Positions 41,773 to 49,600 of a DNA stretch of 64,000 bases are shown one piece after another. Where the stretch lies: the NCBI GenBank assembly GCA_956465555.1, contig OY101115.1, positions 1,736,001-1,800,000 of the forward strand. The letters run 5' to 3'. How positions within the stretch are numbered: the first letter of the stretch is position 1; each line of letters opens with the position of its first letter. A program made the translations under genes and the position numbers. The notes under the pieces were generated by a model, which saw only the letters and a list, made by a program, of their open reading frames with translations, made no database searches and was not told the DNA's origin. The DNA comes from Nitzschia sp. pyKryTriq1 (Eukaryota; Bacillariophyta; Bacillariophyceae; Bacillariales; Bacillariaceae).

Positions 41773-42843
41773 TCAGACCCTATCCTCGTTGTTATTGTTG
41801 TTGCTCTGTGAAGCTCCTAATCGTCGTTCGAGTGCCTCTAGTCGTGCCTGCCGTGGGTCAGAGGGTGGGGCCCGCCTTGATGCGGTTCCCAGCTGACGAC
41901 CCCCGCCCTCCGGAAAGGCTGCTTTGGTCGGAGAAGTAGACGTTGAATTGGCACCGGTGTGGATTGCACGCCCTGGCCGTGGGTCTCCCAGTGGATTCCC
42001 CCCAGCATCACTTGTTGTACTTGACCGCCCCTGTGCTTGGTGGGGCTGCAAAAGCCTTGAAAAAAGCCCTAGACCCCCAGCTGATGAAGATGATTCATCT
42101 TGGCTCCAGTCCCCCAACCCGGAAGCGTCGTTAGAGACCCAACCCTCTCGATTTACGCAGCTTTCTAGTATCGTTTGTTCCCATCTCTGAATTCGGATAT
42201 TGTCTACTTTCAAGGCATCCAAGTAGCCTTGTTGATACAAGACTCCCAATCCAATTGATAATAAAAAAGCAAGTTGGAATCCACCCAAGAAAGAGAAGAG
42301 TACCAGCAATGCAAGAGGATAGTACCTGGTCGGGACGGTGACCAAGAAAAGTCGCCTCATGGAAGTCGCTGGCGCTTGCGAGCATTCAATGCTCAAGAGT
42401 CCAAATATTATAATCCAGAGCCCGGCACAATGTAGAAAAAGCCACGACGGACTTCCTGTGATGGCGTTAAGAAGGAAGCATAGCAAAATGTGGAGTACGT
42501 TGACCAAGATTCCCAGCGTCAGTATCAGCGACCCAAAGGCAGTCGAGCCCATTGTGTGTTCCATCCGGCGCCCATTGTCTGCGAAACTGATGTACGCAAA
42601 AACTAGAGACATTAGATTTTGGCAAATGAAAGGGCTGAGGACAATTCGATAGATTTCGAATTTGAAAATGGTGAAGTGAGGAACATTGCCCACCGCCAAG
42701 GAGAGATCTATGAAGAAGGAAAGAACCCAGGTGATTGCCTGAGACTGCAATAGGAATCTTGTTACCAATGGAGTCTGACGGACAAAGGACTCGTAAGCCT
42801 TTAAAATGGGGTTGTCGTCGGGAGGCGGTGGGGCGTCTGCCAT
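41773..42843 (-). CDS. Rhomboid-like membrane protein lacking catalytic serine motif
   Basis: The gene encodes 356 aa from ATG 42843 (the upstream extension starts at TTG). Residues about 25-220 contain five or six hydrophobic segments arranged as in rhomboid/derlin-like proteins. FEIYRIVLSPFICQNLMSL resembles the 'W/YR..T.F' first-loop region and FADNGRRMEHTMGS resembles the E-x-x-x-G-S region. Where active rhomboids have G-x-S-G, this protein has HCAGLW, so it is probably a pseudoprotease. UBAC2-type rhomboid pseudoproteases and TMEM115 are the nearest ideas; both act in ER/Golgi quality control. The C-terminal 140 residues are Ser/Gly/Pro-rich, ending in RQARLEALERRLG, a short helix. A TGATAC microsatellite lies in its 5' UTR. 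Confidence 0.72.
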   Translation of the reverse strand: MADAPPPPDDNPILKAYESFVRQTPLVTRFLLQSQAITWVLSFFIDLSLAVGNVPHFTIFKFEIYRIVLSPFICQNLMSLVFAYISFADNGRRMEHTMGSTAFGSLILTLGILVNVLHILLCFLLNAITGSPSWLFLHCAGLWIIIFGLLSIECSQAPATSMRRLFLVTVPTRYYPLALLVLFSFLGGFQLAFLLSIGLGVLYQQGYLDALKVDNIRIQRWEQTILESCVNREGWVSNDASGLGDWSQDESSSSAGGLGLFSRLLQPHQAQGRSSTTSDAGGNPLGDPRPGRAIHTGANSTSTSPTKAAFPEGGGRQLGTASRRAPPSDPRQARLEALERRLGASQSNNNNNEDRV

Positions 42844-43417
42844 TTTGTTCTTTGTTTCTTGCGTCAATCGTCAATCCTGATACTGATACTGATACTGATA
42901 CTGATACTGATACAGTACCAGTAGACTAGCGACTAGAGAGGTTGCTCTCTTCGTACGTGTACAGTACTCTCTCTAATGGTGCGAATAGAGAGAACGGACC
43001 GTGTGCAACTAGTACTTGGACGAGTTCTACGAAAGCCGGCGAAAAGTGGTACTGTACCGGTACTTGTAGTGGGATGATAGCCATCATCGAATCATCATCA
43101 TCATCATCAAGTGACGAGAGGCTGCTATCTTTGCTTTTCCTGGATGAAAATAAAAAGGCAATATTTGATCAGTTCGACCAAAAAATCGGGGTCGCTGGCA
43201 CAGTAATAGTGCCCCCCCCCCCCCCCCTCTTTTCATTTTTTTGCTTTCCTCGCATCCTCATCGTATTTACATGTAGAAGTGCCCAAATCCGATTTGAGAT
43301 TTTCGGTCCATTCTCCCATTGAGAGGTGTACTTGTACAGTACCGGTATGCATGTATAAGTATCTAAAGTCTAAAGGCAGGCCAAAGCTCGACATCTTGTT
43401 GTGACTTGAGATCAAAC
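42844..43417. other. Divergent promoter region with simple repeats
   Basis: This gap between the rhomboid-like and NELF-C/D genes holds six TGATAC units (about 42878-42913), GTAC words at 42915-42965 and 43045-43065, a CAT run (about 43083-43110) and 16 consecutive C at 43212-43227. No gene is seen. Confidence 0.65.
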
Positions 43418-46184
43418 ATGAGTGCAGATGACGACGAGGTTCCAGAGAGAGAGAGCAACGACGGGAGCGAAGTTGACGCCCAGGAAGGCGGGGTTCATGA
43501 ATGGTCCGCTTTCTATGACGACGATGGGAGGATCTACTATTATAACAGCACCAGTGGCGAGAGTTCCTGGGACCCACCGGAAAAATACAACCCTCCGCCC
43601 GACGAGCAAGCACAGGAAGGTTCCACGGAGGAAGCTGCCGCCGACAAGGCAGCGGATTCTGAGCCTCAAGGGGAGACCGCCACTAGCGGCAGCGATGCGT
43701 GGGTAGTCTACCGTGATGACGAGGGCCGGGAGTACTTTTTCAACACAGTGACGGAAGAGACTACATGGGAAAAACCAGAAGGCTTTGAACCACCGTCGAG
43801 TACGGCAGATGGAGAAGAGCCGGAAGAAGGAGCAGTTTCGCCCGTGAGGGCAGCAAGTCCAATTGCGATGGACGATGAACCATCGACCCCCGAGCAAGAC
43901 GAGCCTGCTCCTATGGAAACGCGAGAAGAACAAGCGCCCGAGCAGGAACCAGAAGAATCGATAGATCCAGCATTAAAACGACTAGAAGATGCTCGGGCGG
44001 CTCTCAAGCAGACTGACGCTATTATGGAGCCAGGTGAGTCCCTTTCTCTCGTGCATATACATTTCAAACAATTTCATCATCGCAAAATCTTCTCCATTGC
44101 TAAATTGCTTTGATCCATTGGTTCCAGGGGTGTTGGCTCATGTTACTGAAGTCGTGACGAGCGAAGGTGGTAAGCCGCTGGCAGCTATCGAGGCTCTCAG
44201 CGAGAGTTACTTCGGTGAAACGGCAGCTTGTGGGCTCTTGGGACGTTGGTTGGCCGACTTGAAATCTCAATCGGCGGCATCGGATGCTACAGAACAAGAA
44301 AAATCATTTTCCCTCGCAGCAGATGCAATCCGAGAAACGGTGCAGGACGTCATCAATCGTATGAGCAAGGAACGGTTCACGCAGACTGGAGGTGATAGCA
44401 TTCTTAGGCTATCCAAATCGGAGGCTGCATTTCTGGCGGAAATGATGATTTCGAGTCGGTGGAGAAAATTGTTGATCGATTTGTCAGCATCCAACAAAGA
44501 CAGTCCGCTCCTTATGTATTGTCTGGAGCAAATCTCGAAACAGGGGCATCATAGAGAGATTGCGCGGAGAATCAATCAATCGGACCATTTTACGGTTTTC
44601 AATGCTATGCTGGGCTCTGAGCTTTCTGTGATTGGAAAAATTGCTGTTTCCTCCTGTAAGGGGACAGACACTTCTATTAGTATAGGGGAGCTTGTCAGCG
44701 ATCTCCAGCGGACTTGCACCAGTACTGCTTACACGTAAGTATTTTTGGCATGTCTCACAGTTGCATATCATAGAAGGCTAACGGCTTCCATTTTCACCAG
44801 CTACATCTATGCCGTCGAGGTACTGAGACAGCTCATAGTTACTGCAAAGCAGAAAAAATTGTCGGAACCCGACTTTCAGAGCACTCTCTTTTCCCGGGCG
44901 ATTCGGAAATGGGAAAGGCTCAACGAGGACTTGCAAAGCACCATTGTTGACCCATCCGTTGCCGCTGGTTCCACACCACTTTTTCGAAAGCGACGTTTGG
45001 ATGTTGCTGTCACGATAAGTGAGCTACATCAACGCCAGAGACGACGCATCATGCCGTCCGACGATGGACTTGTAGTCGCAGACCGGGCAGATCACGATGA
45101 TCGTCGGGCCAAAGTAGAAAGTGCTGTTTTGGAGTTCCTTCGCAGGTATTCCCTTGGAACGCGCGTGGACGATCGCATATTGGATAAAATGCTGCCGGAG
45201 GGACTTACTGGGGACTCTACAAATCTTGTCGGGCAGCTCATGATCAAGCGGCCTCTAACTGTCAAGGCCCTATTGGGATATATGTACAGACCTGGCAGTC
45301 AGAGAGTGACAGATGTCGTGACGAAAAACAAATGTGCTCGGTTGGTTTCCTTTGCGGTGCATGCCGCTGAAGACGAAGCCTTTGTCGAGGCGAAACAGTT
45401 GGACGACTCGTTATCACCCCTGGACCATGACGAACTAGCGTTGACCCGGATGTTGTTGGAAGGAAGTCGGTTGTGTGAAACTCTGGAAAACATGGTTTCC
45501 TTCATTGTTACGGGTCCAGGGGTAAAGAGTGATCTGCCCAACTCTCCTGGTCAGCAACTGTGCTCCTTGGCAGTGAAGTGCACGCCTGTAGCCCAAGGGG
45601 TGGCGATCTGGGCTCGTGAAGTCACCAAAGGGAGTGAATTCGTCTCATCAGCATCGTATCCAACCTTATCCCCGAGTATTCTGTCCCTTATGAGAGTTCT
45701 GTTCGTAAAGCATCCATTTATCCGAGATGATGCCTTGGAGGTCGCACTTTGCTTCCTCAAACATTCCAATTCAGAGATTTCCTATCAGAAGATGAATGAG
45801 ATCAAAGAACAAAGTCTTCGGCTTCTCCTGTTTCTCTGCACAAGAGGAGAGGCGCCTACCGTACTCGGTCAAATCCTAAGGCTACTGACGCAGCCAGGGG
45901 CATCTCACTTGGACGCGTCCTTGATCCGCTACTTCGTGTCTGGATTGTTGGAGATTGTTAGGGCCCCCTTTTCCATCCCCTTCGTACGCCTCGTATGCGC
46001 TTTGCTGAAAGCGCCAGGTACCGTGGAGGCTGTCAAAACCAACTACTTTGACGAAGCGAGCAGGAAAGAGCTGAATCGGGTCCTTCGCTACTTGGAGGGT
46101 CTAGAAACGAATGGTACCCACGGCAAATTGACGCCAGAAGATGCCAGTCTTTTCAAGTCAGTCGCGTCTGTATATGCTAGCTAG
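43418..46184 (+). CDS. NELFCD: NELF-C/D (TH1) subunit with two N-terminal WW domains, 3 exons
   Basis: Exons 43418-44033, 44128-44734 and 44801-46184 join in phase to 868 aa. NELF-C/D is the scaffold subunit of the negative elongation factor that pauses RNA polymerase II. The TH1 region (about residue 195 to the end) shows family blocks recalled from the animal protein. These are AIMEPGVL, then AIEALSESYFGETA..LLGRWL, then a MISSRWRKLLIDL segment and SLIRYFVSGLLEIV..PF near the end. Before it lie two WW domains, residues 28-57 (W29, W51, P54) and 94-123 (W95, W117, P120). They sit in an acidic Pro/Glu-rich stretch. WW domains bind proline-rich or phospho-CTD peptides. Animal NELF-C/D lacks them as far as I know. 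The frame is continuous across the fusion in exon 1. Confidence 0.88.
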
Positions 46185-46670
46185 CTGATACGGTAAAATG
46201 TAATTAGTAGGCTTCGTATATAGCTGACTTCATTCTTTCTTTCTAGTTGCTGGGTGTCTCATTGATATTATTTGCGGGTGGTACTGTTTTTTTAAAAAAG
46301 TAGCGAAGGACGTGCGTCTGTGTATCGGCCGATGGGAGATGGGAGGAGGAGATACAGTGCTGTACTGTAGGAGATACTGGTACAGTACCGGTACATACGT
46401 ACTTGTACTGTGGGGTACCCCCCGTACCGGTACCTTGTACTTCGTACAGTGAACGTAATAGCAAGCGTTGTTCACCCGCCTCTATGAACCCTCATTCATA
46501 GCTAGCTAGTCATAGTAGAGTTTGAGACAAGGCAAACCCGCACGTGCCTTGGATAAGAGTTCACAAGGTGATTCCAGTGCCAAGAATAGCACGAATCATC
46601 AAAAATCAAACCGAAAGGGTGATCAGCTGTGCTGGGTCGTGAAGAAGGCCGAGGCACAATCACTGATTCA
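46185..46670. other. Convergent 3' gap with GTAC words
   Basis: This gap separates the stops of the NELF-C/D and Prp5 genes. GTAC/GGTACC words fill 46350-46445. No gene is supported. Confidence 0.55.
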
Positions 46671-49600
46671 TTAGAGGACATTGTACTTGTGACTACTTGT
46701 GCCTGATGCCGCGCGAGATCCGACACGGATCGTCTCTTCGTTCAGAAGCCGTTTAATCTCCAAAACGCAATTCTGCAAGACACGTTCACTAGTCGCCTCG
46801 AGGTGCAAATAAAGCTTCCTTTCCCCTTCGCCTGCGGTCCGACCGGGGCCGAAGAATTCTCCCTTTAGCGTTACTGCAGTTTGGAATTCGTCTTGAAGCC
46901 GCGACGTGGTTTCTTTCTGGGTCACTTTCCATCGTGCCTCTCGTGGGTAGTCATTGATCTCGAATTCCTGCACAAAGTGGTTCGAGCCCATCTGGACGGG
47001 ACGACCAAGTGTAGGATCGTCCTCGGTCTCTTTGACAATGCCTGCTCGACGCAAGATAGCGTCCTTCATCCCAGGTAGGGCAAGCAACTCAGGAGTTAGC
47101 TTCGTCTGCAGATCTAGTGCCTTCTCCGCTTCGCTATCATTCTTCTTGTCGTCATCAAGAGAGAAAGTAGAACCATTTGCTTCGGAATCGTTCTTGGCTT
47201 TCGATTCGCCGGTTAATGGATCCTCCTCGTCTGGATCCAAAAGTCCGGCTTCGATAAGCGCTTGTCGTTTTTCCATTTGCGCGACCTTTTGGGACTCGTT
47301 CATTTCCGACGCATCGTACGAGTAGCCTTTGCCCTTGAAACCAGATCCGGCCCATTTCGCCTCACCCCTCTTTACTTTCTCTTTAAACTGGTCGGATAAT
47401 TCCTTCAAAGCTGGTGCAATATTCTCGGATTGTCCTGCTTCGCTCAAGGCCCGGACAATATTGGGTGCGAACTTGGCCTCGTCGGCCGAATTCACCATGG
47501 TATATGCTACCCCTTTGTTGCCGGCTCTCCCAGTTCGGCCAACTTGATGAACATATGCTTCCAGATGGTTTGGGCAGGAGTAGTTGATAACGCATGCACA
47601 GGATGTTACGTCCAGTCCGCGACCTGCGACCCCTGTTGCGACTAGGACGCTGGGGCCATCTTTTCGCTTGAAATCCGAGATAGTGGAATCACGATCTTCT
47701 TGCTCTTTCCCCCCATGCAGAGATAGTGACATGTACCCATTCCTTAGCAGCTGCTCAAAAAGGCTATCTGCTCTGACCTGGGTGTCGACAAAAACTATCG
47801 CCTTCTTGTTTTCATCCACGTTCTCACCCAACAGCTGTAGCAAGCGAAGAAATTTGTCTTCCTCTTCCACGAGTTCAGCATGTTGTGTGATGTTGTCGGA
47901 TGCAACTGATCGACCACCCACAATTACTTCAACAGGGTATGTAAGAGACTTCCTGGCAAGAGTTTCAACCGCCTTGGGGAAAGTTGCCGAGAACAGAACC
48001 ACTTGTCGATCTGGTCGGATGGCAGCAAGAATGGCACTTATTTGGGGTGCAAACCCCATGTCATACATTCTATCCGCCTCGTCCATTACGACGTACGATA
48101 CTCGTTGGAGCGAAAGCAATTTACCCGACTGCATAGTCAAAATGTCGATTAATCTGCCGGGCGTGGCAACGCATATGTGTGTTCCGCGCTTCAAATCACC
48201 AATCTGCTCCGCAACACCTGCTCCACCATAGACAGCTGTGGACCTAAGGAATGGGCAGAAAGAAAGAATTAGAGGATATATGCGTGAGATAAAGCATGAC
48301 TTCAGTAGCATACAAAAACTCCAAATGAATCAAACGAAGTACAAATATTCTTCTTCCTGGGGAAGGCATTTGCGTTAGCACCCAAAGTGCAGAAAAATTC
48401 CATAGAAACACATGGCAAAATCACTTACTTGAGCCCCAATTGTTTGGTGAACACTTTGCACACCATATGAATTTGGTAAGCAAGTTCACGGGCTGGTGCC
48501 AGAACAAGACCAATCGGACCTGATTCATTGGGTCCCAAAGGTGGTTGGTCCATGATATGTCTCAGCATCGGCAAAAGGTAAGCCAGAGTTTTCCCGCTTC
48601 CCGTCTTGGCAATACCGATCGTGTCTCGGCCAGCCATGATACAGGGGAGACACTGTGCCTGAACGGGGAAAGGTGTTGTAATTTTTTGTTTTTCCATCAC
48701 TTTCAATATCCGCTCTGAGAGCCCACACTGTTCAAAAGAAGTAACTGGCGCAGGTGCCCCATGCCCCCGAACTTTGACCTTCAGCTTCCCTCGCACATCT
48801 GCAATTTCGTCACTTGAGAGTTTCGCCAAACTACGCGGAACAATATATAAATTCTTTTTGAAAGGGATGTAGTCGACCTCGTCATGGTCGACCGCTTTGA
48901 GTTCTTTCTTTTTATTGAGCTCTGCAAGAACCTGAAGTGCATCTGGAGCTGCCATGGCTGCGTCCAAGTTTCGCTCTGCCTCTTCCATAACACCGCCTTC
49001 GCTATCATTGTAAAGTCGTCCAAGCGACGGTGCCGCCGCTGATTGCGCCAAAAGCCGGGCTTCTTGGGCCTCTTTCTCTAGATCCCGTAATCGCTGTTCT
49101 CTTCGCTGTTTCTCGCTTCTAACTTCGGCCGCTAGTCTCGGCTGATCTATTTCATCATCTTCGTTTTCTTCTGCGGGACCAGGTACTGATTTCAAGGCTT
49201 CTATAAAAGCTCGTCTAGCATTCTCTTCCTCTTCATCTTCGGTTTCAGTCTGCAGCAAAAATACAACGCGGACACAAATCCATGAGTACAGTACTTCGAA
49301 CCGATTCACATCCTCTAAGCAACAGACAAGAACGAGACATATCGACTTACCCCACTAGCCCCGTCACCAGTTTGTTCATCGCTCTCCCAGTCACTTGCCG
49401 TATATAGCGCATCGGGGTCTGTCGCCTTTGCCTTCGAGATCGCAATGGTAGATGACATCTTTTCAAGCTGTTCGGACGTGATAACTCCACCTGATAAGGG
49501 AGAGGGTTGGGCTTGTTTCAGCTTGGGAACACGCATCATGCTCCCCCCAACATCGATCGAGAGCATCTCCGTTCCAGTTGACTCTGACACCTGCGTCGCG

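What the first reader, a model, noticed from the sequence alone, without database searches (positions are those of the whole stretch)
43418..46184. Fusion of two WW domains to the NELF-C/D (TH1) pausing factor
One frame in exon 1 carries two well-formed WW domains (W29/W51/P54 and W95/W117/P120) and then enters the TH1 region. NELF is known mainly from animals and some protists and is absent from yeast and land plants as far as I know; the animal subunit has no WW domain. WW domains that bind phospho-CTD or proline-rich partners would tether NELF-C/D to polymerase or to splicing factors, suggesting a distinct diatom pausing complex.
Basis: partly seen in the sequence, partly recalled or inferred. 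Interest (0 to 1): 0.75.

Follow-up and report, generated by a model that had tools for sequence, protein, structure and literature searches.

The report
WW-domain NELF-C/D pausing factor in diatoms
In diatoms, a subunit of the machinery that pauses RNA polymerase II is joined to small protein-binding modules (WW domains) of a type best known from splicing and elongation factors; the joining is shared by distantly related diatoms, but what it does has not been tested.

Summary
Exons 43418-44033, 44128-44734 and 44801-46184 join into an open 868-residue frame with two WW domains (68.7 bits, cut-off 26.9) and TH1 (121.9 bits, cut-off 24). A profile of 55 relatives matches solved NELF-C/D colinearly (3.6e-37). 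It is no artefact: 96 of 98 full-length members (this one included) carry WW domains, one to nine each, in raphid, araphid and centric diatoms; 6 of 7 transcript-labelled relatives hold both parts. First and second WW are separate conserved orthologues.

The WWs resemble TCERG1, Prp40 and PRPF40A, a type that binds proline-rich tails, and their loops are acidic. That favours a tail like that of the SF1-like protein of this genome over phospho-CTD, which is not excluded.

NELF-B, NELF-A and HEXIM were not detected, but a similar search missed a CTD that exists, so absence is not shown. Ligand and pausing role are inference. New variant of a known kind: an old fusion across diatoms, present in databases, not found in print.

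The parts
43418..44033 (+). Exon 1: start codon, both WW domains, acidic linkers and the first conserved TH1 residues (about 181-205)
   Evidence: splice; Pfam; conservation rises again from residue 181
43499..43582 (+). WW1, residues 28-55
   Evidence: best PDB matches TCERG1 3.1e-12 and Prp40 2.6e-11
43589..43600 (+). NPPP motif (residues 58-61) just behind WW1; a like motif in 27 of 96 members
   Evidence: any function is inference
43700..43783 (+). WW2, residues 95-122
   Evidence: best PDB match PRPF40A 3.1e-14
44034..44127 (+). Intron 1, 94 nt, GT..AG, with an in-frame stop at 44111-44113 if retained
44128..44734 (+). Exon 2: N-terminal TH1 region
44735..44800 (+). Intron 2, 66 nt, GT..AG
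44801..46184 (+). Exon 3: middle and C-terminal TH1 region, with stop codon

Best explanation
It is the diatom NELF-C/D, a core subunit of the Pol II pausing factor, carrying upstream of everything that aligns to the human protein a flexible acidic arm with two WW domains of the PRP40/FBP11/TCERG1 type (group II/III). Shown by sequence: the gene, both domain types, their order, conservation across diatoms and later multiplication of the WWs. Inferred: the TH1 part sits in a NELF core on early Pol II-DSIF, and the WW arm grips proline-rich tails of co-transcriptional partners (LPPPP-type tails such as that of the SF1-like protein first), so that early splicing or processing factors are held at, or sensed by, the early elongation complex. 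More WW copies would raise avidity.
For: NELF-C/D identity: Pfam 4.3e-35, profile against PDB 3.6e-37 over chain residues 23-249 and 321-562. Fusion kept in 96 of 98 full-length members, with WW segments conserved and linkers not. First and second WW stay distinct: 52 of 55 and 55 of 55 two-WW members. WW type: TCERG1, Prp40 and PRPF40A are the best PDB matches; the positions listed as ligand contacts of PRPF40A (PMC11079029, passages) are aromatic here (F32, Y40, Y42, W51; Y98, Y106, F108, W117), and both WWs have Asp (D35, D101) where PRPF40A WW1 has Pro152 and WW2, which takes PPPP, has Asp193. The SF1-like protein of the same genome has four LPPPP and six PPPP starts in its tail and no PPLP.
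Against: No ligand, localisation or pausing data exist here. Human RNA-binding patches 2 and 3 are mostly not kept. NELF-B and NELF-A were not detected, though without a working control. WW matches are common in this genome (45), one protein with a Sec16 domain having 20 WW stretches, so WW arms may have other jobs, and proline-rich tails are common too. No family N-terminus and no SF1 tail here holds PPLP.
Confidence: 0.55

Rival explanations
1. The WW arm works inside the protein or its complex: it binds its own NPPP motif or a proline-rich stretch of another NELF subunit, as a clamp or an autoinhibitory filter.
For: NPPP-like motif behind the first WW in 27 of 96 members, and PPP somewhere in the N-terminal part of 50 of 96. 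PRPF40A WWs are autoinhibited by their own proline-rich stretch (PMC11079029, passages).
Against: 69 of 96 lack the motif behind the first WW. Arrays of up to nine WWs are more than one clamp needs.
Confidence: 0.2
2. The WW arm binds the phosphorylated Pol II CTD itself and so anchors NELF-C/D on the polymerase.
For: RPB1 of this genome has 23 YSPTSP heptads, so the ligand exists. Yeast Prp40 WWs are said to bind phospho-CTD (recalled, from no call).
Against: Acidic loop I in most family WWs, where Pin1 has basic residues (recalled). Pin1 and ESS1 match weakly (0.0038 and 4.9e-4, against 3.1e-14 for PRPF40A). Passages of PMC11079029 give CTD recognition to the FF domains of PRPF40A.
Confidence: 0.15
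3. The fusion is an artefact of the gene model, or the main product is WW-only: two reading units wrongly joined, or intron 1 kept in the mRNA.
For: Intron 1 is 94 nt with an in-frame stop. 2 of 98 full-length members and 22 of 23 shorter ones show no WW, and 1 of 7 transcript-labelled ORFs has none.
Against: Same order in 96 of 98 members and in 6 of 7 transcript-labelled ORFs. Exon 1 itself holds WW and the first TH1 residues. 19 of the 23 shorter ones begin within 6 aa of the TH1 start or inside it, as cut gene models would.
Confidence: 0.03

Closest known systems
Human NELF-C/D (NELFCD, TH1L; PDB 8w8e, 7ycx, 5l3x)
   Same: TH1 over almost the whole length, colinear, 3.6e-37 with the family profile
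   Different: No WW in the human protein; the WW arm lies before everything that aligns. Lysines of patches 2 and 3 mostly not kept
PRP40 / PRPF40A (FBP11)
   Same: Tandem WWs; best PDB match of WW2 (3.1e-14); aromatic contact positions kept
   Different: Body is TH1, not FF domains; the two WWs lie 66 residues apart (Trp to Trp), against about 41 in PRPF40A (from residue numbers)
TCERG1 (CA150)
   Same: Best PDB match of WW1 (3.1e-12); WW domains on an elongation factor
   Different: No FF domains here; Pfam's own TCERG1 WW model stays far under its cut-off (23.4 of 70 bits)
Records of diatom proteins named 'TH1 protein/WW domain' or 'negative elongation factor C/D' (JGI) and 'TH1 protein' (NCBI)
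   Same: Same architecture and family
   Different: Automatic names only; no study of them was found

Membership tests
NELF-C/D (TH1) | TH1 domain over the curated cut-off | tested here: met
   121.9 bits, cut-off 24
NELF-C/D (TH1) | Colinear match to solved NELF-C/D over most of its length | tested here: met
   3.6e-37, chain residues 23-249 and 321-562 of 584
NELF-C/D (TH1) | Basic nucleic-acid patches of human NELF-C (listed in PMC4940160) | tested here: inconclusive
   Share of K/R in family columns (n 111-120): K371 0.01, K372 0.35, K374 0.02, K384 0.06, K388 0.02, R419 0.65, R506 0.57; the two patch-1 residues fall in an unaligned part. The paper calls the patches well conserved in metazoans, partly in Dictyostelium
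NELF-C/D (TH1) | Partner NELF-B (COBRA1) and NELF-A in the same genome | tested here: inconclusive
   No match for PF06209 and PF23553, but nothing rang in any control genome
NELF-C/D (TH1) | Part of a complex that pauses Pol II | not testable with these tools
   Needs biochemistry or PRO-seq
WW domain, group II/III (PRP40/FBP11/TCERG1 type) | WW fold signature with aromatic ligand positions | tested here: met
   contact positions from passages of PMC11079029
WW domain, group II/III (PRP40/FBP11/TCERG1 type) | Binds PPLP or polyproline | not testable with these tools
   Needs binding assays
PRP40 / TCERG1 proteins | FF domains | tested here: not met
   No FF in the 868-aa protein at E <= 0.001: only the WW type is shared
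Pin1-like phospho-Ser/Thr-Pro WW (group IV) | Basic phosphate-binding loop I (rule recalled) | tested here: not met
   Loop I is DDDGR and DDEGR, acidic in most of 271 family WWs

The most novel reading that the evidence does not exclude
Early in diatom history NELF was rebuilt: with no recognisable NELF-E or HDAg-type NELF-A, NELF-C/D took on a WW array, so that the pause is coupled to splicing-factor tails instead of an RNA-binding arm and P-TEFb sequestration, with the number of WWs (one to nine) tuning it lineage by lineage.
Probability: 0.12. Interest if true: 0.85.

Novelty: new variant of a known kind. Interest (0 to 1): 0.5.

Why it matters
Core NELF (B and C/D) is proposed to be ancestral in eukaryotes, with pausing strengthened by subunits added towards animals (PMC11482795, passages). 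A separate lineage that joined a splicing-type WW arm to the same core subunit, kept it from centric to raphid diatoms and multiplied it to nine copies would be an independent way of wiring the pause to RNA processing, and it can be tested in diatoms that are grown and edited in laboratories.

Tried and rejected
Chance or gene-model artefact: rejected by the family. WW-less members as a real second state: of 121 aligned sequences (120 listed of 167 found, plus the window's) 23 were set aside as short (under 60 aa before or under 600 aa after the TH1 start); 22 of those have no WW and 19 begin within 6 aa of the TH1 start or inside it, so I did not count them either way. The two full-length ones without WW (P0011, P0079) have N-termini that look like read-through of other frame or intron sequence (read by eye). 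Over all 218 proteins fetched, fragments included, 126 have a WW. WW counts use a model that I built from the family's own WWs.

Relatives outside diatoms: three protein searches gave no hit named as a non-diatom. Searches were capped (120 listed of 167 and of 144).

Own-genome searches for NELF-B, NELF-A_N, HEXIM and CTD heptads gave nothing; the heptads were then found by reading RPB1, so such negatives are weak. NELF-E was not searched for. Papers: 0 for NELF + WW domain + diatom and for negative elongation factor + diatom; the listings (15 of 393; 15 of 507; 4 of 4) held nothing on this by title. Supplements were not seen.

Full report
Observation. ATG 43418 follows an in-frame TAA at 43364. 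Pfam gives two WW stretches (68.7 bits, cut-off 26.9) and TH1 (121.9 bits, cut-off 24). The window lies in an assembly of 40.65 Mb in 20 contigs in which TH1 gave two matches, both in this gene. Exon 1 ends after residue 205, inside the conserved start of TH1, so it already links WW and TH1 sequence.

It is NELF-C/D. The single sequence matches PDB chains of NELF-C/D at 1.6e-15; a profile of 55 relatives matches at 3.6e-37, colinear over chain residues 23-249 and 321-562 of 584. The WW arm lies upstream of everything that aligns. PMC4940160 (passages) reports NELF-C homologues in single-celled organisms (Chlorella variabilis, Dictyostelium) and crosslinks of lysines 66 and 125 of the human N-terminal region to NELF-E, so in the human complex the N-terminal part of NELF-C lies near that subunit.

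The fusion is real and old. The first protein search found 167 relatives, 120 listed. Those with an organism name are diatoms: Nitzschia inconspicua and Nitzschia sp. Nitz4, Cylindrotheca closterium and C. fusiformis, a Bacillariaceae sp., Seminavis robusta, Epithemia clementina, Psemu1 (Pseudo-nitzschia, recalled), Fragilaria crotonensis, Skeletonema potamos and S. dohrnii, Discostella pseudostelligera. Look-ups place Seminavis in Bacillariophyceae, Fragilaria in Fragilariophyceae, Skeletonema and Discostella in Thalassiosirophyceae; the other placements are recalled. Of 121 aligned sequences 98 pass a length rule and 96 of these have a WW: 12 have one, 55 two, 29 three to nine. Among 55 two-WW members the first WW is on average closer to other firsts in 52 and the second to other seconds in 55. 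Larger arrays are in part products of later duplication: in P0003 6 of 9 WWs, in P0006, P0010 and P0037 5 of 7 each, and in P0008 5 of 8 are closer to a sibling than to any WW of proteins under 75% TH1 identity; but in 8 of the 24 arrays of four or more, none is. I found no named non-diatom relative, but the searches could not settle that (see Tried and rejected).

What the WWs are like. WW1 matches TCERG1 and Prp40 best (3.1e-12, 2.6e-11), WW2 PRPF40A (3.1e-14); PPxY-type WWs such as Itchy are weaker (0.0048 and 2.2e-6). Positions that PMC11079029 (passages) lists as contacts in PRPF40A are aromatic here: F32, Y40, Y42, W51 and Y98, Y106, F108, W117 (placed by hand from the printed alignments). 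At the loop position where PRPF40A WW1 has Pro152 and WW2 Asp193, both WWs here have Asp (D35, D101), like the PRPF40A WW that takes PPPP. Loop I is acidic in most of 271 family WWs, which speaks against a Pin1-like phosphate site (rule recalled). Passages of the same paper say that the WWs bind proline-rich SF1 and SF3A1 tails and that the FF domains recognise the phosphorylated CTD; WW-TH1 has no FF. Outside the WWs the arm is 30% Asp/Glu in this protein.

Possible partners in the same genome. An SF1-like gene (KH-BBP domain 80.4 bits, cut-off 30; SF1-HH below its cut-off) ends in a proline-rich tail with four LPPPP and six PPPP starts and no PPLP. RPB1 has 23 YSPTSP heptads, 18 with Ala at position 7. 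Spt5-NGN is present. A PRP40-like protein (WW and FF) has weak WWs: Pfam gives one stretch (29.4 bits), whose second Trp is Tyr. NELF-B, NELF-A_N and HEXIM were not found, without positive controls; the CTD-heptad family was missed in the same way although the heptads are there. Among six WW-bearing loci of this genome compared (not all of the 45 WW matches), the closest WW to WW2 is the second one of the PRP40-like protein (56%), to WW1 one of L011 (54%): too little to name a donor.

Mechanism. Shown: domains, order, conservation, multiplication. Inferred: TH1 in a NELF core on Pol II-DSIF, the arm holding proline-rich tails. I put 0.55 on this, 0.2 on a clamp inside the protein or complex (NPPP-like motif behind the first WW in 27 of 96), 0.15 on phospho-CTD and 0.03 on artefact. 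Results against a simply human-like NELF: of the lysines of patches 2 and 3, four of five are K/R in at most 6% of members and one in 35%; the two NELF-C residues of patch 4 are K/R in 65% and 57%.

Known or new. JGI records already name some relatives 'TH1 protein/WW domain' or 'negative elongation factor C/D', so the architecture is in databases. No paper on it was found with the terms in an open-licence library. The main text of PMC11482795, which traces NELF subunits across eukaryotes, has no occurrence of diatom, stramenopile, Phaeodactylum or SAR; its supplement was not seen. I rate this a new variant of a known kind, interest 0.5: solid and old, with the function untested.

Noticed in passing
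L013:485-9256, minus strand (G000:C5, about 524484-533255): A 2924-residue open frame carries 20 WW stretches followed by a Sec16 Sec23-binding domain (100.5 bits, cut-off 22): a WW array joined to a COPII coat-assembly factor. No paper held Sec16, WW domain and diatom together.
   Followed up: partly
L003:1333-3048, minus strand (G000:C4): The PRP40-like protein has poor WW domains: in the first the second Trp is Tyr, while those of NELF-C/D are intact. Whether other diatoms share this was not checked.
   Followed up: partly
window 41773-42867 (-) and 46671-48311 (-): Neighbours of the gene: a DUF1751/rhomboid-like membrane protein and a DEAD-box helicase with a KH-like domain; no link to pausing seen.
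   Followed up: partly
window about 43050-43070, 43335-43350, 46380-46440; also the start of L005: Intergenic stretches hold repeated palindromic GTACCGGTAC-like words (read by eye).
   Followed up: no
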